Below are positions 4,054 through 14,311 of a stretch of 14,311 nucleotides of DNA, in pieces; positions within the stretch are counted from its first letter, which is position 1, and the number at the start of each line of letters is the position of its first letter. Location: NCBI GenBank assembly GCA_027024625.1, contig JALVRY010000256.1, forward strand, positions 1 through 14,311, given 5' to 3'. The position numbers were made by a program, and so were the translations under genes. Below the pieces are notes generated by a model. That model saw nothing but the letters and a program-made list of their open reading frames with translations. It did not search any database and had not been told where the DNA came from. The stretch comes from Thiotrichaceae bacterium (GTDB lineage: Bacteria > Pseudomonadota > Gammaproteobacteria > Thiotrichales > Thiotrichaceae).

Positions 4054-5325
4054 ATGAAAAAAGCGTTTATCAGCTATCGACGATCAGACAGCCCTGGCTA
4101 TGTACGTGCTTTATATGATCGTTTGGTACAGCATTTTGATTCACGACATGTGTTTATGGATGTGGACGATATTCAGCTTGGCTTCGACTTTGTCACCGTA
4201 TTAGATAAAAATCTAAAAGATTGCGCTGTAATGCTTGTTGTAATGGGAGAAGGGTGGCTGAATGCGCGTAACTCAAGTGGAGATCGCCGCTTAGATAACC
4301 CTGCAGATTTTGTTAGGTTGGAAATATCGAGAGCGTTGGAACGGGGTATTCCTGTTATCCCCATTTTGGTTAACCATGCTCAAATGCCCTCAGAGAGTGA
4401 TTTGCCTGATAATCTAAAAGCGTTAGCACGCCGCCAAGCCTTAGAGCTAAACAATAAGAATTATGATTACAGTATTCAGGACTTGGTTAAAGCACTAGAA
4501 AAATACCTAGGAAAGCCAAAGTCGCGTCCAAGGAATCAGCAAGCATTTATTAAAACTGAGCAAAAAATGCCGTGGTATTACAGTGTACCGTTTCTTGTTT
4601 TTATCACATTATTTATGTTTCCAGTGGGTTTTTTCCTTATATGGAAATCACCAAGACCCTTCAAATCAAAAGCAATGGCAGGAGGTATTGCTTTTGGTAT
4701 TTTTATTTTGATGGTTCTTATTGGTGGTGAAGATACTGATAATACAACTGATGGCGATAGTATAGATTCCGATCAAGTTATGGTTGCACCGCCACCTCCT
4801 AACCAATCTTCTAGCAATACAGATGCGGCGGGTTTTGATTGTAATGCAGCAGGAACGGATGCAGAAAAAGCAATTTGTGCGACAAGTGAAGCACGTCGTG
4901 CCGATAAAGAAATGAATGATGCCTATCGAAAGTTTGAGGAGAAGCTCCCTCCCGCTGAGCGAGATAATATGTGGGAGCAACAAAAAATTTGGCTACAAGG
5001 GCGTGATAATCATATTAAACACACCTGCTTAAATAAGCCAACTGAGCAAGCAGCGTCTAAATGTATTAGCAAGTTCTACCAAGAGCACACAGACTTTTTG
5101 AGTAAAATACTAAACTCACGCTTTATGGAAATGCGTGTATTCGATCCCCCCAGCAACATTCGTGATAAACCAAATGGAAAAATACTTTGTGCAGTTCCCA
5201 AAAAAGAAATTATCACTATCTACATTATCCCAGTAGAAGATGGTAATGATTCATGGTACTGGACAGAATACTGCGGTAAAGGTCAGTGGGGCATGATCCA
5301 TGATAGCCAAGTAAAACCACTGTAA
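4054..5325 (+). CDS. Membrane protein: TIR domain – hydrophobic hairpin – LprI/DUF1311-like domain – SH3-like tail
   Basis: 423 residues with four parts. Residues 1–153 are a bacterial TIR domain: FISYRRSD at the start, VFMDVDDIQLG (33–43), GEGWL (65–69), and DFVRLEISRAL, where E90 aligns with the catalytic glutamate of NADase TIRs such as SARM1. Residues about 174–197 and 206–225 are hydrophobic, separated by the basic stretch KSPRPFKSK. A low-complexity Asp/Ser/Pro linker follows. Residues about 260–350 resemble LprI/DUF1311: FDCNAAGTDAEKAIC, then WLQGRD, with cysteines 263, 275, 325 and 337. Residues about 358–423 resemble an SH3-like domain (NIRDKPNGK, then WYW and GQWGMI) with C379 and C407. 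Family knowledge: LprI-like domains are normally secreted and some inhibit lysozyme; TIRs act in the cytoplasm, often in anti-phage defence. Inference: a transmembrane receptor-effector. It is monocistronic between two inverted-repeat regions. The domain calls are firm for TIR, good for LprI, moderate for SH3. Confidence 0.85.
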   Translation: MKKAFISYRRSDSPGYVRALYDRLVQHFDSRHVFMDVDDIQLGFDFVTVLDKNLKDCAVMLVVMGEGWLNARNSSGDRRLDNPADFVRLEISRALERGIPVIPILVNHAQMPSESDLPDNLKALARRQALELNNKNYDYSIQDLVKALEKYLGKPKSRPRNQQAFIKTEQKMPWYYSVPFLVFITLFMFPVGFFLIWKSPRPFKSKAMAGGIAFGIFILMVLIGGEDTDNTTDGDSIDSDQVMVAPPPPNQSSSNTDAAGFDCNAAGTDAEKAICATSEARRADKEMNDAYRKFEEKLPPAERDNMWEQQKIWLQGRDNHIKHTCLNKPTEQAASKCISKFYQEHTDFLSKILNSRFMEMRVFDPPSNIRDKPNGKILCAVPKKEIITIYIIPVEDGNDSWYWTEYCGKGQWGMIHDSQVKPL

Positions 5326-6931: not shown

Positions 6932-7303
6932 TTGTTACCTTCATCATTAAAAAACATATTAATTGCAGATGATTCCGCAACTGATCGGAAAAACTTATCG
7001 CTTACCTTGCAGAAATTTGGTTTAAATGTGACTGCTGTAAATTCTGGCAATGAAGTAACAATTAAGGCGGAAGAAATAAAACCTGATGCCATATTTTTGG
7101 ATGTCATTATGGAAGATGGCGATGGCTATCATGCTTGCCGAACGCTTAAAAGAAATGATGTTACCAGTGACATCCCAATTATCATTGTTTCAAGTAAATC
7201 TAATCGTGTTGATAAAATGTGGGCAAAAAAGTTAGGAGCAGATGCTTATGTAACTAAACCATTTACGGATGATGATTTACGAAAAGCGTTAGAGGATATT
7301 TAA
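6932..7303 (+). CDS. pilH: PilH-type single-domain response regulator (CheY-like)
   Basis: 123 residues, one receiver domain and no output domain. The acidic pocket is D13/D14 (IADDS), the phosphorylation site is D57 (IFLDVIM), the switch residue is S87 (IIIVSSK), and the conserved lysine is K109 (TKPF). The stretch NRVDKMWAKKLGADAY is typical of PilH/PilG proteins of the Pil-Chp system, which tune type IV pilus extension or retraction after phosphorylation by ChpA. It starts with TTG behind a good ribosome-binding site. It is the first gene of the operon, with 2 bases between its stop and the next ATG. Whether it corresponds to PilG or PilH is not certain; the VDKMW segment favours PilH. Confidence 0.85.
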   Translation: MLPSSLKNILIADDSATDRKNLSLTLQKFGLNVTAVNSGNEVTIKAEEIKPDAIFLDVIMEDGDGYHACRTLKRNDVTSDIPIIIVSSKSNRVDKMWAKKLGADAYVTKPFTDDDLRKALEDI

Positions 7304-7305
7304 TC

Positions 7306-7794
7306 ATGGGAAAAAGCATGGAAGCCCTAAAAAATAATCCAGATAATAGACAAGAAAAATCTAATAACATTAGTCATAGTTTATTTTGTTATGAGATTGA
7401 TAATAAACGGGTTTTAATAGAACCAGAAATACAAATGGAAGTTTTAGAGGAAACAAATGTTTACCCTGTGCCTAATGCTCCTAAATGGTACTCTGGGGTA
7501 ACAAGTTTGCGGGGTGATATTTTAGTAGTTGCCAATATGCACTTTCTTCTTAATGCTGTTAATAAACAAGAAAATAATCGCTTACTTAGGCTTAAACATC
7601 CAAGCTTTCCCCCTATTGTCCTAGTAATAGATACGTTGCCCTATCAAATAGATATAGCTGGTTCTGAAGAAAGTAACAAAAAAAATGAAGGTGAATTTCC
7701 TCGGTGGATTAAATACTCAATTACAAAAGGTAAAAATACTTTTCTATATTCAGATCATTCTATTCTATTTAAATCGATACAAAATAAAATGTGA
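7306..7794 (+). CDS. pilI: CheW-like adaptor, PilI type
   Basis: 162 residues with a CheW fold from about residue 25. The stretch VYPVPNAPKWYSGVTSLRG (52–70) is the diagnostic segment of CheW/PilI proteins, ending in the LRG motif, followed by GDILVVANMHFLL. CheW-type adaptors couple transducers to the kinase in the cytoplasm. The first 20 or so residues are polar and look unstructured. ATG at 7306 follows the upstream stop by 2 bases and uses GAGGAT at the end of that gene as ribosome-binding site; a second ATG at 7318 is possible. The position between the PilH-like and PilJ-like genes matches Pil-Chp clusters apart from the binding-protein gene that follows. Confidence 0.8.
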   Translation: MGKSMEALKNNPDNRQEKSNNISHSLFCYEIDNKRVLIEPEIQMEVLEETNVYPVPNAPKWYSGVTSLRGDILVVANMHFLLNAVNKQENNRLLRLKHPSFPPIVLVIDTLPYQIDIAGSEESNKKNEGEFPRWIKYSITKGKNTFLYSDHSILFKSIQNKM

Positions 7795-7854
7795 TGTTTT
7801 ACATCTGAATAAGCCAATATCAAATAATACATTCATCTAATACGGAGAGAGTTA

Positions 7855-9102
7855 ATGTATTCTCAACCTATAAAAAAAATATTCAGTTTAAGTTTGCCCA
7901 TATTCATTGTCCTTAATCTAAGTTTGTATTCAATAACTGCCTCCGCTGAAGAGGGTATTTCAGATGGAACGATACGCATAGGCGGTGTTCTTGATCTTGA
8001 AGGGCGTTCTAAAGGTTTAGGGCAAAATATGAAAGCTGGTATTGATGCAGCATTCAAAGGGGCTGTGGTAAAAAATAATAAAGTAAAATACCTAGCACTC
8101 AATGACTCTTACAATCCCCAAAAAACCGTCAAAAGCACAAATGAGCTAATCAATAATAAAGTCTTTATCTTTGCAGGAAATGTGGGTACGCCTACTGCCA
8201 AAGTCTCATTACCTATTCTTGCTGAACACCATATTCCTGCTGTTGGATTTTTTACAGGAGCCGGTTTATTACGCCCTGGCAAAGGAGACATAATTAACTA
8301 CCGTGCAAGTTATATCCAAGAAACAGCTGCCGTTATAAAAACAGCACTCAGTAATGGTGTTAATGCCAATAATGTTTGTGCCTATGTGCAAAATGATGCT
8401 TATGGCATGGCTGGTATTGCAGGAATTCTCAATGCTCTAAAAGGCAAAAAAAATAGCGAGAAAGCAATAGCCGCTCTTGAAAAAGTAAAGGCTCTTACGG
8501 GAGATAATCCTCAACGTAATGGTGTGGGGCCTGTTGGTGTTTATAAACGTAATAGTTATTCAGCTCGACAAGGCTACCTCTCACTTAAGGCATGGGAAAA
8601 GTCACAGCAAACACAGTGCAAATTAGTCATTACTGTTGGCTCTTATCAGTCAATTACTGAGTTTATTGCTTACAGTCGATATAAAAAAGAATCTTGGATC
8701 TATAGTGCTGTTTCTTTCACTGGTGCAGATAATTTTAAAGCTGCACTAAAAGAATTTAATATTGAGGATGGCGTAATCATGACGCAAGTTGTTCCTCCTG
8801 CTAACAGTACTATCCCAGTAGTTTTAGAAGCAAAACAAAAACTAGGCGAGGATTTTAATGCCGTTTCTCTAGAGGGCTTTATTGTTGGAAAACTCGTCCT
8901 GCATGGCTTAGAAAAAGTAGATGGCGATATAACACGTAATAAATTTACTCAAGCAATACTTAAAACACGTTTTGATTTAGGGGGGCTTACCTTAGATTTT
9001 ACTACGGATAACCAAGGTTCCGATCTCGTTGAATTCACTACATTTAAGTCTGGTGAATGGATTGATGGAAATGATACAAGCATCTGGAAAATAAAAGGTT
9101 AA
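7855..9102 (+). CDS. Periplasmic type I substrate-binding protein (LivJ/Peripla_BP_6-like) within the chemosensory operon
   Basis: 415 residues. A signal peptide is clear: basic KK at 7–8, a hydrophobic core, and TASA before a predicted cut after A31. The mature protein begins EEGISDGTIRIGGVLDLEG, the standard start of branched-chain amino-acid/amide binding proteins. NVGTPTAKVSLPILAEHHIPAV (109–130) is the usual first-lobe ligand motif; VCAYVQNDAYGM marks the second lobe. No ABC permease or ATPase genes are adjacent. Instead it lies 60 bases after the CheW-like gene and 6 bases before the transducer, with its own GGAGAG ribosome-binding site (7844–7849). The inferred role is ligand capture for the transducer rather than uptake. 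Precedent is BasB–BasT of Halobacterium, a binding protein paired with a transducer for branched-chain amino acids. The ligand here is unknown. Confidence 0.88.
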   Translation: MYSQPIKKIFSLSLPIFIVLNLSLYSITASAEEGISDGTIRIGGVLDLEGRSKGLGQNMKAGIDAAFKGAVVKNNKVKYLALNDSYNPQKTVKSTNELINNKVFIFAGNVGTPTAKVSLPILAEHHIPAVGFFTGAGLLRPGKGDIINYRASYIQETAAVIKTALSNGVNANNVCAYVQNDAYGMAGIAGILNALKGKKNSEKAIAALEKVKALTGDNPQRNGVGPVGVYKRNSYSARQGYLSLKAWEKSQQTQCKLVITVGSYQSITEFIAYSRYKKESWIYSAVSFTGADNFKAALKEFNIEDGVIMTQVVPPANSTIPVVLEAKQKLGEDFNAVSLEGFIVGKLVLHGLEKVDGDITRNKFTQAILKTRFDLGGLTLDFTTDNQGSDLVEFTTFKSGEWIDGNDTSIWKIKG

Positions 9103-9108
9103 ATAACT

Positions 9109-10962
9109 ATGATAAATATTAAAGATATTATAAGTTTTGAGAAACTAAGTTTAGTAAAACGCTTAACTATTCTTGTGGTTTTTCCAATTGTATTAACCCT
9201 TATTTTTGGACTTTTTACACTTCAATCATTCAATAATAATAGAAATACACTTCACGATATATCTGGCCGATCAGATATTCTATTATTAGCACACAACCTC
9301 TTAGCAAATGTGCATGGGCCGATACAGAATACAATCCTTAATGTTAATAGTGGTAAGCTAACATGGGGGGATGGACTTAAAATACTGTTGGAACATCAGA
9401 AAACGGTAAAAGCACAACTTAAACAATTTAATGCTTTTAATGCAGCAAATGCTATTAAAGAAAATGTTAGTGCAGAAGAAGCTAAGCTGGCAATGCCAGA
9501 ATTTTTATCTGCACTTGATGATGTTATTAAAATAGTCAGAAGTGAGAATAAAACACATCTAAAGTTATTTGTACTAGAAGAAATGCACGATCGAATGAAT
9601 CCGCTAGTAACCGCGGTAACGAATTATCAAAGGGAAGATGTAGAATTAACAAACCAAGAAATTTTTAATACATTAGAAAAAATAAGTACAGATGAAAATA
9701 TTATCTTCATACTACTTATCGCAAATTTATTTTTCTTACTTGCACTTGGTTACCTTGTATTTAGATCCATATCAAAACAAACAAATTCACTTACATCAAC
9801 TATTGAGGCTCTAAACGAAGGAAATAGAAAAGCAAGAACCTCAATTACAGGCAAACATGAGTTAGCACAACTTGGAACTGCACTCAATCGTTTATTAGAT
9901 GAAAAAGACCAAACAGAAAGATTTATTCAACAAGAAAATGAAACATTAAATGATTCTGTCTTTTCACTACTTGAATCAGTAGCTGACCTTAGTGAAAGAA
10001 ATTTAACAGTACGAGCAGTAGTAACGGAAGACGTTACTGGTCCCCTCGCCGATGCAATCAATCAACTTGCAATTGATACCAGTAGCGTATTGAAGAAAGT
10101 TCAAAATATTGCAGTATCTGTAGAATCAACCTCTAAGACTGTTGACCAACATACGCTTACCGTAAAAGAGCTGGCGGAATCTGAGTATTCTGAAGCCAAA
10201 CAAACATCGGAAGCGGTTGATAACTTAATAAAACGCTTAAACCAAATTGCAGACTCATCTTCATCCGCAAATGATATTGCAAACGAAACAACACAAGCCA
10301 CGGAAAAAGCCTACCAATCTGTGGGGAAAACACTAGACAGCATGACGGAGATACGAGAAACCGTTCAAGAAACAGGTAGACGTATTAAACGTCTAGGAGA
10401 ACGCTCTCAAGAAATCACGCACATTATCGACTTGATCAACACCATCACAGAAAGAACAACAGTGCTTGCTTTAAACGCGAGTATGCAAGCACTCTCCGCA
10501 GGTGAGGCAGGAAAAGGATTCTCTGTTATCGCGGAAGAAATTCAACGCTTAGCAGAAGGTTCGCGTGAATCAACAGACCAAATCGCTAACTTGATCAAAA
10601 ATATCCAGCAAGAAACGCGTACAACAATGACAACAATGGATAATACGATTGAACAGGTGATTAGTGGTTCTTCTCTAGCAGAAGAGGCTTCTGAGCAAAT
10701 GCAATTAACATTGGATGCGACAAATAAACTAACGCAATCTGTTGAGTCTATTGCACAGGCATCTAAAGAACAGGTGGAAATCAGTAAGAACCTCCATATT
10801 CGTTCAGCAGAAATTCTGAAAGCCACCCAATCAACGGGTCAAGAGATGGAGTCATTAAGCGGCCTAACAAAAGACATGGTAAGAGATGCTCAAGACCTCG
10901 TACATTCGGTCAATGTATTTAAGTTAGAAGACACAAAGTTTTCCAAAGCAAAAGCTGCGTAA
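9109..10962 (+). CDS. pilJ: PilJ-like methyl-accepting chemotaxis transducer
   Basis: 617 residues. Membrane segment 1 is about 19–39 and segment 2 about 198–218, enclosing a roughly 160-residue, mostly helical periplasmic domain. A HAMP domain follows (about 219–272), then a second HAMP-like segment (about 283–336, [17 protein letters not shown]), a tandem arrangement also seen in PilJ. The signalling domain spans about 350–600, with the hairpin tip [24 protein letters not shown] and [27 protein letters not shown] instead of LNAAIEA is the PilJ-type variant. There is no C-terminal CheR/CheB docking pentapeptide; the protein ends KFSKAKAA. Its start is 6 bases after the binding-protein stop, with AAGG 10 bases upstream, arguing strongly for coordinated expression. 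Confidence 0.88.
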
Positions 10963-11062
10963 ATAACCCTAGCCACCCTGAATTAAGCGCTCAATAAATG
11001 CCTATTCTCTCCATTTATAGAGTTAACTTAATCGTGAGCTATTTAGTTAGAGGATCATTAGA

Positions 11063-14000
11063 ATGAGTTTGGACTCTGAAACACAAATCGCCTTAGCAGA
11101 AGAGTTAGAAGACATAGCAATGGAGCTGGCGAATATTTCTTTATTGTCTCCTCCCCAAAATGATGTAACTAACGATCAAATCTATCAAAAAACTCACTCA
11201 GAAACAGAGCGTCTTAACGATATTTGTGAGCTATACGGTTATAACGAACTAAATATTATTACAACATGGGCTGATAAGAATGTAGTTTCATTAGAAACAG
11301 ATTTAGACGGCTTGATAGAAAGAAATAAAGCAGGATTATTTTATACTTGGCTTGAGTTACTTACTGCCTTACTGCGTAATTATGATGAAGAATTACTGAC
11401 AGAGTTAGAAACTAGCTTACTTGATCCTTCATGGGTGCTCCCTATTGCAAAACAAGATTTACAATCACTATTACAGTCCTTAGCTGATGCCCCAATAGAA
11501 GTTGACCATAATTCACAAAATGCGACCGAAGAATTATCAGAAGATGAGAAAAAATCATCTACTCAAGAATCAAGTTACCTACTCGCTTGGGATGATGATA
11601 TTCACCCTGAATTACTAGAATCTTTTTTTATTGAGACACCCGATCAGGTAACTCAAGTAGCAGAACTAATCAGAAATATAAGTAAAGGTAAGATTGAGGG
11701 TGACACACATAAATCCGCTGCCCGTATTGCCCACACAATAAAGGGAGCAAGTGCAGTTGTTGGTATAGATGCCGTTGCAAGCTTTGCTCATAAATTAGAA
11801 GATATATTAGAGTATTCTGTTGAAAATAAGCTTCCTGAAGAAGTAACTACACTACTAATCGAATCAGCAGATTGCCTAGAATCTATGTTTGATAGCTTAG
11901 TAACACAAAGCTTACCGCCTCAACAATACCCTAAACTACTAGAAAAATTGTCTTATTGGAGTGATAACTTTACTTCGACTCATGCCCATGAAGGTACTCC
12001 CACACATGCAGATGAGATAAGCACCATAGAGCCAGAGAAAGAGCATGACAAAGGGATCGATTTATCTTGGGATGATGATGTTCACCCTGAACTTTTGGAA
12101 GCTTTCTTCATTGAAACACCTGATCAAGTTACTCAAGTTGCACAATTAATTAGAAATATTAGTACAGGAAATGTGGATATAGAAACACATCAATCTGCAG
12201 CTCGAATTGCTCATACAATAAAAGGATCAAGTGCGGTTGTTGGTCTTGAGCCTGTTGCAACATTTTCCCATAAATTAGAAGGTATTTTAGAGTATTCCGT
12301 TGAAAACCAGCTCCCTAAAGAAGTCTCTGAATTATTGATTGAATCAGCAGACTGCTTAGAATCAATATTTGATAGTTTAGCGACACAAAGCACAGCTCCA
12401 CCACAATATTCTCAGTTATTAGAAAAATTATCCTACTGGGAAGAAACCTTTGCCTCAGATCAAGTCTGTGAAGAAGATGCTGAGCAAGATCAAATAGAAG
12501 AAACAGACTCAACAACTGAAAAAAATACCGAAAGCTATAAATTAGCATGGAACAAAGATGTCCATCCAGAACTGCTAGATGCTTATATGGGAGAAACACC
12601 AGAGCATGTTATTGAGCTTACAGAATTGTTACGACGGATTAGCAAAGGTGAAACAAAAAAGGAAATATATAAAAAAGCATCACGTCTCTCTCATACAATA
12701 AAGGGTACAAGCTTTGTTGTTGGCATCACACCCGTTGCCGACTTGTCTAATAAATTAGAAGAAATTCTGGAATATGCAACGGAGCATTCACTGCCTCCTG
12801 CCTTACCCTCTTTACTAGAAGAATCTGCTGATTTACTAGAAAGTCTCTATGACTCTTTATTATCTGAAGGTACACCGCCTAAAGAGTATCCTGACCTCTA
12901 TGCAAAACTATGTGATTGGGATAAAAACTTACCGAAGCAAGCTACAACGCAGGAAGAATTACAGAAAAAACTTAAAATAGAAAAGGCTACTCCCGACTTA
13001 TCGAGCATGGCAGGAGGATCTCCTCATGCCGCTGAAGATAAAGTAAGAAAAGCGACTAAATTTAGTATTGACCTTCCTCCGCTACAGGAAATATTGCCAA
13101 CACCTACAACGCCGATGCAGCAGCCTCCTCCTGCCACACATCGTGCTAATTTAAATGAAGCATCATTGCGTATACCTATTTCTGTTATTGAAAAGTTACT
13201 CAGCCATTCCACCGAGCTGATTACCATCAATACACAAATGTCTGATCAAATACAGGCACTTCTTGCGGAAAGAAACACAATCAATAACCGTAATGAGCAA
13301 ATTCGGAATATGCTGAATGAGTTAGAGTGGGCAGTAAATAAACAAACGGCAATAAGCTCTAAACAACTAAGCAAACATAAAAAACATAGCCACCTAGACA
13401 GTTTAGAAATGGATAGCTATAACGAATTACACAGTATTGTTGGACTCCTTTCAGAGGCTATTGATGATGATCGTGAAACATCACTCTCATTAATGCAGCA
13501 ATTAGGTGATTTAAAAGGAGAAACCTATAAACAAAAGCGTTTAAATAAGGAGGTTAACAATACTATTCTCAATATGCGTATGGAACCGGTGAAAATTCTA
13601 GTTCCTCGCCTTGAACGCATTATTCGTGAAACATGTCGCCAAACAGGCAAACAGGCTGATTTTAAAGTCATCGGCGAAAATATCACAATTGACACAGATA
13701 TTCTTAAAGGCTTAGTTGACCCATTACTCCACTTACTTAGAAATTCTGTTGACCACGGCATAGAATCACAAGAACAGAGGAAGAAGAAATCTAAAAGTAG
13801 TACTGGAAATATAGAATTATCTTTTGTCCAGCAGGGCGATCAGGTGGTGCTAACTCTCAAGGATGATGGGGCAGGTATTGATGCTGATAAAGTCTACAAA
13901 ACCGCAGTCAAAAAAGGTCTGGTCAAAGCAAAAAGTAAATTATCTAACAATGAAAAACTCCGCTTAATACTATTATCAGGCTTCTCTACCCGTGACAAAG

Positions 14001-14311
14001 TAACAGAAATATCAGGGCGAGGTGTTGGCATGGATGTCGTTAATACTGCTATCAAAAATATGTCTGGTAGTATTACTATCGAAAGTAAAAAAGACCAAGG
14101 TACTGAAATTCGCATACAAGTTCCGTTGACCTTATCTGCTGCCAATATATTACTTGTTAAAGTATTAGGTCATACCGTTGCTCTTCCCAACTCGACAATT
14201 CAACAAGTACATTATCTTACTCAAGACAGCATTATTTTTGATGATGAAAAACTCTTTATTGATTACAACGGTCAAGCAATCCCATTATTAGCTTTATCTA
14301 CGTTGCTTAAC
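11063..14311 (+). CDS. chpA: ChpA/PilL-type CheA histidine kinase with three tandem HPt modules (3' truncated by window edge)
   Basis: The frame is open from ATG 11063 to the window end (1083 residues, no stop), so the gene continues. AGAGGA (11049–11054) is 8 bases upstream. Residues 1–173 are acidic and helical, without an obvious HPt. Three HPt modules follow, with phospho-accepting histidines H224, H384 and H544, each in a HTIKG motif. A proline-rich linker comes next (about 670–700), then a long helical dimerisation region (about 705–835). The kinase core shows the N box HLLRNSVDHGI (890–900), G1 DDGAG (934–938), F box GFSTR (973–977) and G2 GRGVGM (985–990). A CheW-like regulatory domain begins at about 1022 and is cut off. 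ChpA kinases of the Pil-Chp system phosphorylate PilG/PilH; a C-terminal receiver domain is likely beyond the edge but not seen. It is the last visible gene of the operon. Confidence 0.92.
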   Translation, partial: MSLDSETQIALAEELEDIAMELANISLLSPPQNDVTNDQIYQKTHSETERLNDICELYGYNELNIITTWADKNVVSLETDLDGLIERNKAGLFYTWLELLTALLRNYDEELLTELETSLLDPSWVLPIAKQDLQSLLQSLADAPIEVDHNSQNATEELSEDEKKSSTQESSYLLAWDDDIHPELLESFFIETPDQVTQVAELIRNISKGKIEGDTHKSAARIAHTIKGASAVVGIDAVASFAHKLEDILEYSVENKLPEEVTTLLIESADCLESMFDSLVTQSLPPQQYPKLLEKLSYWSDNFTSTHAHEGTPTHADEISTIEPEKEHDKGIDLSWDDDVHPELLEAFFIETPDQVTQVAQLIRNISTGNVDIETHQSAARIAHTIKGSSAVVGLEPVATFSHKLEGILEYSVENQLPKEVSELLIESADCLESIFDSLATQSTAPPQYSQLLEKLSYWEETFASDQVCEEDAEQDQIEETDSTTEKNTESYKLAWNKDVHPELLDAYMGETPEHVIELTELLRRISKGETKKEIYKKASRLSHTIKGTSFVVGITPVADLSNKLEEILEYATEHSLPPALPSLLEESADLLESLYDSLLSEGTPPKEYPDLYAKLCDWDKNLPKQATTQEELQKKLKIEKATPDLSSMAGGSPHAAEDKVRKATKFSIDLPPLQEILPTPTTPMQQPPPATHRANLNEASLRIPISVIEKLLSHSTELITINTQMSDQIQALLAERNTINNRNEQIRNMLNELEWAVNKQTAISSKQLSKHKKHSHLDSLEMDSYNELHSIVGLLSEAIDDDRETSLSLMQQLGDLKGETYKQKRLNKEVNNTILNMRMEPVKILVPRLERIIRETCRQTGKQADFKVIGENITIDTDILKGLVDPLLHLLRNSVDHGIESQEQRKKKSKSSTGNIELSFVQQGDQVVLTLKDDGAGIDADKVYKTAVKKGLVKAKSKLSNNEKLRLILLSGFSTRDKVTEISGRGVGMDVVNTAIKNMSGSITIESKKDQGTEIRIQVPLTLSAANILLVKVLGHTVALPNSTIQQVHYLTQDSIIFDDEKLFIDYNGQAIPLLALSTLLN
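11585..12064 (+). repeat. HPt tandem repeat unit 1 (480 bp)
   Basis: Encodes residues 175–334, from AWDDDIHPELLESFF through H224 (AHTIKG) and KLEDILEYS to KLSYW (W299), plus a linker. Unit 2 lies exactly 480 bases downstream and is very similar in the folded part. Confidence 0.85.
12065..12544 (+). repeat. HPt tandem repeat unit 2 (480 bp)
   Basis: Encodes residues 335–494: SWDDDVHPELLEAFF, H384 in AHTIKG, KLEGILEYS, KLSYW (W459), plus a linker. It is closest to unit 1; the linker is unrelated in sequence but of the same length (37 residues between flanking tryptophans). Confidence 0.85.
12545..12931 (+). repeat. HPt tandem repeat unit 3 (diverged)
   Basis: Encodes from AWNKDVHPELLDAYM through H544 (SHTIKG) and KLEEILEYA to CDW (W619). 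Landmarks stay in exact 480-base register with units 1 and 2, but the sequence is clearly more diverged. Confidence 0.8.

What the first reader, a model, noticed from the sequence alone, without database searches (positions are those of the whole stretch)
4054..5325. TIR domain fused across the membrane to an LprI-like and an SH3-like domain: candidate envelope-sensing TIR effector
Seen: an N-terminal TIR with the catalytic-type glutamate (E90), a hydrophobic hairpin, a cysteine-paired LprI/DUF1311-like domain and an SH3-like tail in one 423-residue protein. Known: TIR NADases act in the cytoplasm, many in anti-phage defence; LprI-like domains are secreted and some bind lysozyme; SH3-like domains often bind cell wall. 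Inference: the outer domains could sense lysozyme-type attack, a phage lysin or wall damage and switch on NAD+ cleavage inside. I know of no described system with this domain order.
Basis: partly seen in the sequence, partly recalled or inferred. Interest (0 to 1): 0.75.

Follow-up and report, generated by a model that had tools for sequence, protein, structure and literature searches.

The report
Receptor-like TIR protein with wall-facing module
This bacterial gene encodes a membrane protein with a SARM1-like TIR enzyme domain that should lie inside the cell and two small cysteine-bearing domains of kinds linked to the cell wall that should lie outside; a related species carries the same outer part on a different, protease-like inner domain, which suggests an alarm receptor with exchangeable effectors.

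Summary
ORF 4054-5325 (423 aa) has a TIR_2 domain (7.5e-11) and an LprI domain (2.2e-8). Its tail misses Pfam's SH3 models but its predicted fold matches SH3 domains. E90 aligns with SARM1's glutamate; SARM1 and TIR-1 are the nearest solved sequences. Of 63 genomes of the order, 4 carry TIR-TM-LprI-SH3 (one with an in-frame TGA), 2 carry TIR-TM-SH3, and one carries CHAT-TM-LprI-SH3 (CHAT 3.9e-26): the inner effector is swapped on the same outer module. Three others have secreted LprI-SH3_3 proteins. Six module cysteines are invariant, and charges favour TIR inside, module outside. A true hairpin would contradict that; six relatives show one segment there.

A null mutant of the LprI protein ScwA kept normal lysozyme sensitivity (PMC7933661, passages), and the neighbours examined are ordinary genes, different each time. 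NADase activity, ligand and trigger are inferred. New variant of a known kind.

The parts
4054..5325 (+). whole gene, 423 aa TIR - membrane segment(s) - LprI - SH3-like protein
   Evidence: ORF; relatives with same order
4066..4479 (+). TIR domain, residues 5-142 (PF13676), SARM1-like by sequence profile
4321..4323 (+). E90 codon, catalytic-type glutamate, invariant in 11 aligned TIRs
4585..4641 (+). hydrophobic segment 1, residues 178-196; a second segment of this kind is also in G036; possible re-entrant or membrane-lying segment
   Evidence: hydropathy
4672..4728 (+). hydrophobic segment 2, residues 207-225; likely the membrane-spanning one (4 K/R before, 7 D/E after)
4840..5094 (+). LprI domain, residues 263-347, conserved cysteines C263, C275, C325, C337
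5122..5322 (+). SH3-like (SH3b-type) tail, residues 357-423, conserved C379 and C407

Best explanation
A one-gene, receptor-like inner-membrane protein. The N-terminal SARM1-type TIR lies in the cytoplasm; one membrane-crossing helix leads to an extracytoplasmic tail of an LprI domain and an SH3b-like domain, held by what are probably three disulphides. The outer module probably binds peptidoglycan or a wall-associated protein and reports a change there; clustering would bring TIRs together and switch on cleavage of NAD+ (or production of an ADP-ribose signal), ending in growth arrest or death. Shown here by sequence: domain order, conserved cysteines, conserved E90, relatives, effector swap. 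Predicted: SH3 fold, topology. Inferred: ligand, disulphides, clustering, NADase activity, outcome.
For: TIR and LprI over their Pfam cut-offs. The TIR profile finds solved SARM1 and TIR-1 NAD+ hydrolases at 1e-13 to 2e-11, ahead of the other solved TIRs listed (SPARTA TIR 0.00067, TcpB 0.026), with E90 on the SARM1 glutamate. Six module cysteines are invariant in 6 of 6 LprI-SH3 proteins aligned, the SH3 pair in 8 of 8. Six relatives with one segment show more K/R before than after it. LprI elsewhere: 31 of 37 loci have a hydrophobic stretch within 45 residues before LprI, as a signal peptide or anchor would give. Three proteins of the family have LprI followed by Pfam SH3_3 (5.2e-9 to 8.3e-7) behind a signal-like N-terminus, so the LprI-SH3 tandem exists as a secreted unit. 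Tail fold resembles SH3 parts of wall hydrolases. The same module sits on CHAT in G025. Same genome has TIR-TM-2xSH3_3; a class relative has TIR with 5 PASTA stretches, 2.1e-59. 21 of 22 class-wide TIR loci have a membrane segment after the TIR.
Confidence: 0.5

Rival explanations
1. Anti-phage sensor: the LprI-SH3 module detects lysozyme-like enzymes or a phage lysin and triggers abortive infection through NAD+ loss.
For: TIR and CHAT are named as effector domains of bacterial defence systems (PMC10907252, passages); weak partial matches to Thoeris models; SH3 fold like that in a phage endolysin.
Against: No defence system recognised among the neighbours scanned (the neighbour hits below 0.01 in PADLOC were a CheY-like, a RIO kinase and a RelA-like protein). 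A null mutant of the LprI protein ScwA had normal lysozyme sensitivity (PMC7933661, passages). In 50,697 phage records only two hits, both to the LprI part; three pattern scans of viral contigs found no relative.
Confidence: 0.17
2. Envelope housekeeping regulator: the module tunes wall enzymes, as ScwA affects MltD, and the TIR is a scaffold or makes a mild signal, not a death effector.
For: The genes sit among ordinary metabolic genes. ScwA controls MltD levels (PMC7933661, passages). Secreted LprI-SH3_3 proteins without any effector exist in the family.
Against: E90 is invariant in 11 aligned TIRs, which a pure scaffold would not need; the swap to CHAT joins two effector types; patchy presence, 4 of 63 genomes for the full TIR form.
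Confidence: 0.15
3. Two-component signalling: the TIR makes a cyclic ADP-ribose-type signal read by a separate effector elsewhere in the genome, as in Thoeris.
For: N-terminal 70 residues match Thoeris ThcB4 and ThsB1 models partly.
Against: 47.2 bits against a 220-bit cut-off; no partner gene next to it in the window; nearest solved relatives by sequence are named NAD+ hydrolases. A partner elsewhere in the genome was not searched for.
Confidence: 0.12
4. The two hydrophobic segments form a true hairpin and the LprI-SH3 module is cytoplasmic.
For: Two segments, 2.49 and 2.24 mean hydropathy, in the window, and two in G036.
Against: Invariant cysteines in even number; six relatives (G046, G040, G034, G032, G025, G022, the last cut at its N-terminus) show one segment in this place; positive loop between the segments and acidic stretch after the second favour the tail outside; LprI-SH3_3 tandems behind signal-like N-termini.
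Confidence: 0.06

Closest known systems
SARM1 / TIR-1 NAD+ hydrolase TIR domain
   Same: closest solved relatives by sequence profile, glutamate aligned with E90
   Different: SARM1 has ARM and SAM domains and no membrane tail (my knowledge); here the TIR is N-terminal, membrane-anchored, with an outer tail; the weak model does not rank SARM1 first by fold
Animal Toll-like receptors
   Same: works like: outer sensing part, one membrane helix, inner TIR (TLR description in PMC7075850, passages)
   Different: opposite chain order, no LRRs, SARM1-like TIR; no claim of membership
LprI-domain periplasmic proteins (ScwA, M. tuberculosis LprI)
   Same: LprI domain with conserved cysteines, extracytoplasmic (PMC7933661 passages)
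   Different: those have no cytoplasmic enzyme; M. tuberculosis LprI also has MliC, absent here
Secreted LprI-SH3_3 proteins of the same family (L099, L091, L102)
   Same: LprI followed by a bacterial SH3 domain
   Different: signal-like N-terminus instead of TIR and membrane helix, SH3 of the SH3_3 type, an extra C-terminal part
Bacterial conflict systems with membrane segment plus wall-binding domains (iSTAND ternary systems)
   Same: PMC7159879 (passages) describes peptidoglycan-associating domains PEGA, OmpA, PASTA, Sel1 typically after a TM segment, and TIR and caspase-like effectors
   Different: those are multi-gene ternary systems; this is one gene with LprI-SH3
Thoeris ThcB4 / ThsB
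   Same: partial TIR similarity over about 70 residues
   Different: far below cut-off, no partner gene nearby

Membership tests
TIR domain family (PF13676) | score above curated cut-off | tested here: met
   43 bits vs 28
TIR NAD+ hydrolases (SARM1 type) | catalytic glutamate at the aligned position | tested here: met
   E90 aligned with the glutamate of DWVHKE in SARM1; invariant in 11 aligned TIRs
TIR NAD+ hydrolases (SARM1 type) | glutamate inside the NAD pocket in 3D | tested here: inconclusive
   model aligns with solved TIRs incl. AbTir and SARM1 but best with DNPH1; TIR pLDDT modest; coordinates not available
TIR NAD+ hydrolases (SARM1 type) | cleaves NAD+ | not testable with these tools
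   -
LprI (PF07007) | score above curated cut-off | tested here: met
   34.9 bits vs 22
LprI (PF07007) | conserved cysteines | tested here: met
   four in 6 of 6 LprI-SH3 proteins aligned
Lysozyme-inhibiting LprI of M. tuberculosis | MliC domain | tested here: not met
   only TIR_2 and LprI at E up to 10
Bacterial SH3 (PF08239, SH3_3) | score above curated cut-off | tested here: not met
   window tail no hit; 2 of 9 members, best E 0.0014
SH3 fold, SH3b type | fold match of the predicted tail | tested here: met
Thoeris (ThcB4) | NCBIfam cut-off | tested here: not met
   47.2 bits vs 220
Thoeris | partner effector gene next door | tested here: not met
   none among the window's neighbours
Anti-phage defence gene | defence-gene neighbourhood | tested here: not met
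   immediate neighbours only, on mostly short contigs
Anti-phage defence gene | reduces phage plating | not testable with these tools
   -

The most novel reading that the evidence does not exclude
A bacterial wall-watching receptor kit: an LprI-SH3 outer module that lineages of one family secrete on its own or plug onto interchangeable inner death effectors (SARM1-type TIR, CHAT protease), a Toll-like-receptor-like logic in which damage to the cell's own wall, not a foreign molecule in the cytoplasm, trips the enzyme.
Probability: 0.33. Interest if true: 0.82.

Novelty: new variant of a known kind. Interest (0 to 1): 0.6.

Why it matters
The bacterial TIR effectors worked out so far are cytosolic and sense cytosolic cues (my knowledge). 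A SARM1-like TIR tied through the membrane to a wall-facing module, with the effector exchangeable for a CHAT protease, would make it directly testable whether bacteria monitor their own envelope with receptor-like death enzymes, and would give an envelope-side parallel to Toll-like receptors. Searches of the held library for TIR with LprI (2 papers, listing only) and TIR with PASTA (5 papers, listing, one of them read in passages) showed no description of this layout; papers outside that library were not searched.

Tried and rejected
SPOR domain in L017: suggested itself by eye, no Pfam hit; dropped. LprI match to the solved DUF1311 protein 3gi7: E 1.9, too weak to use. PDB profile searches with the LprI-SH3 alignment (best E 0.0094 to an uncharacterised protein) and the SH3 alignment (best 0.076) gave nothing usable; replaced by fold search. 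Cyanobacterial genomes could not be surveyed; 7 plasmid records, all cyanobacterial, carry the SH3-like domain; of the 4 read, 3 look secreted by eye (L061, L063, L064) and one is zinc ribbon - membrane segment - SH3-like (L062). Viral contigs: three pattern scans, no relative. Phages: 2 of 50,697 records, LprI part only. Plasmids with the whole protein: 12 records, TIR, LprI or SH3 part only, none covering 80%. Genome-contig scan: 1 relative, which by length and position is the G036 contig. Disulphide distances and the E90 pocket could not be measured (no coordinates). The 608-aa SH3 hit in G037 was not read. Five of 22 class TIR loci (L113, L122, L123, L126, L127) were not given to Pfam. Corrected while checking: I had first taken the LprI-SH3 pair to be confined to the six close relatives; one search also lists longer matches, which searches show to be three secreted LprI-SH3_3 proteins and one Sel1-like-SH3 protein (by eye).

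Full report

Relatives. In the 63 genomes searched for the order (a contig that matches the same-genus relative G036 is titled Thiotrichaceae bacterium), P0001 matched 21 genomes at 1e-8. The close LprI-SH3 module (E below 1e-70) occurs in 6 of 63: G000 (window), G036, G046 and G040 with TIR; G025 with CHAT; G022 with the N-terminus lost at a contig end. G034 and G032 have TIR, one membrane segment and SH3 but no LprI. G043 has the SH3 part at a contig start. SH3-like hits of any sort: 12 of 63. Pfam gives CHAT 3.9e-26 and LprI 0.00047 (20.9 bits, just under its cut-off of 22) for G025, while the module profile scores it 2.3e-75. The CHAT module is 39-47% identical to the others, inside the 37-58% spread of the set. 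A looser version of the pair exists in the same family: G049, G062 and G058 have proteins with a signal-like N-terminus, LprI, and Pfam SH3_3 at 5.4e-8, 5.2e-9 and 8.3e-7 (LprI 25.1, 21.3 and 17.9 bits against a cut-off of 22). So LprI followed by SH3 is a secreted unit in its own right, which I take as support for an outer position of the window's module. Beyond the order, matches of the module profile in 369 class genomes (23 with a match, own and family genomes included) and 398 phylum genomes (59 with a match) reached only the LprI part, ending by model position 122 of 167, apart from the window itself and one SH3 hit in G037 of the same family (Sel1-like repeats by eye). The SH3 profile found only the window's genome among 398 phylum genomes at 1e-7.

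Topology. The six cysteines of the outer module are invariant in 6 of 6 LprI-SH3 proteins and the SH3 pair in 8 of 8 aligned. Six relatives (G046, G040, G034, G032, G025, G022) have a single strong segment between the N-terminal domain and the module; for G022 the upstream part is missing. K/R before and after it: 5:0, 1:0, 2:0, 2:1, 5:2, 5:2, consistent with N-in, C-out (the script also flags weaker stretches inside the TIR or CHAT domain of G034, G032 and G025 and at the start of LprI in G022). The window protein and G036 have two segments; in the window the loop between them carries four K/R and seven D/E follow the second, so I read segment 2 as the crossing helix and segment 1 as a dip or membrane-lying helix. 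This is a judgement, not a result. In 37 LprI loci from the class and phylum searches in which a simple pattern located LprI, 31 have a hydrophobic stretch within the 45 residues before it and 6 do not (L051, L057, L058, L148, L154, L169).

Wider pattern. Class-wide, 22 TIR loci were read; 21 have a membrane segment after the TIR by hydropathy (thresholds 1.6 and 1.4; L103 and L106 are weak; L122 has none; for L108, L111 and L115 the segment is taken only). Of the 17 of those 22 given to Pfam, one carries five PASTA stretches and two carry FGE-sulfatase domains; most others had no named outer domain. The window's own genome has five TIR hits: one is TIR-TM-two SH3_3 (TIR 1.2e-21, SH3_3 2e-17) and one TIR-TM-TPR (membrane segments read by eye). 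So TIR-TM-outer domain is a recurrent layout, and TIR has met SH3-type outer domains more than once in this genome.

Neighbourhood. The window gene lies next to a divergent DapF-like gene (with a DUF484-like gene beyond it; both named from memory) and, downstream, a 99-codon ORF and a methyltransferase. Relatives sit by PdxA and a BKACE enzyme (G046), MutM-type glycosylase (G040), methyltransferase and RIO kinase (G025), HAD and rhodanese-like genes (G032), RelA-like (G036), an epimerase-family protein (G022) (rhodanese and RelA named by eye; G034 and G043 read by eye only). PADLOC hits among 9 such neighbours were to the RIO kinase (best 6.4e-6) and the RelA-like protein (2.4e-16, candidate PDC-S33), which I take as generic domain matches; among 7 window neighbours a CheY-like protein hit SduA at 1.2e-4. 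I see no defence island, on contigs that are mostly short.

Mechanism. Best reading, 0.5: a receptor-like inner-membrane TIR whose outer LprI-SH3 module watches the wall; clustering on a wall change switches on NAD+ cleavage. The step from LprI to lysozyme is weak: the ScwA study (PMC7933661, passages only) saw no lysozyme phenotype in a null mutant and credits MliC for that role in M. tuberculosis LprI; ScwA instead affects the lytic transglycosylase MltD. That makes wall enzymes or wall damage a likelier cue than lysozyme itself.

Known or new. Prior work describes TIR, CHAT and wall-binding domains in bacterial conflict systems (PMC7159879, PMC10907252, PMC8195603; passages only). None of the passages I read has TIR or CHAT on an LprI-SH3 tail. 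I file it as a new variant of a known kind: transmembrane bacterial TIR proteins.

Noticed in passing
window 6932-14311: pil-chp-like chemosensory operon in which a 415-aa secreted binding-protein-like gene (7855-9102) sits directly before the MCP-like gene (9109-10962); names from sequence by eye, unusual order from memory.
   Followed up: no
L136:460-1917 (G000:C442): second TIR-membrane-two SH3_3 protein in the same genome, not found by the window protein as query.
   Followed up: partly
L099 (G049), L091 (G062), L102 (G058): Proteins with a signal-like N-terminus, LprI and SH3_3 in tandem, plus a further conserved C-terminal part.
   Followed up: partly
L014, L015, L016, L011, L018, L026, L009, L024, L010: Order relatives with the reverse layout: N-terminal export signal-like segment (not seen in L010, cut at its start), outer domain often with a NILYNPPxEM-type stretch, membrane segment, C-terminal TIR, as in Toll receptors.
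   Followed up: partly
L111 (G402:C8): TIR followed by a membrane segment and five PASTA stretches (2.1e-59).
   Followed up: partly
L108, L120 (G383): TIR-membrane-FGE-sulfatase proteins; FGE-type domains are hypervariable sensors in some published conflict systems (recalled).
   Followed up: no
L030:3284-3286: in-frame TGA inside the TIR of the G036 relative on a contig titled with coverage 2.05; error or decay cannot be told apart.
   Followed up: no
L064 (Planktothrix plasmid NZ_LR882946.1): secreted-looking protein with the same SH3-like domain lies close to an annotated brxC (BREX) gene.
   Followed up: no
L140 (G000:C415): 428-aa protein with a vWA-like N-terminal part (by eye) and a C-terminal TIR.
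   Followed up: no
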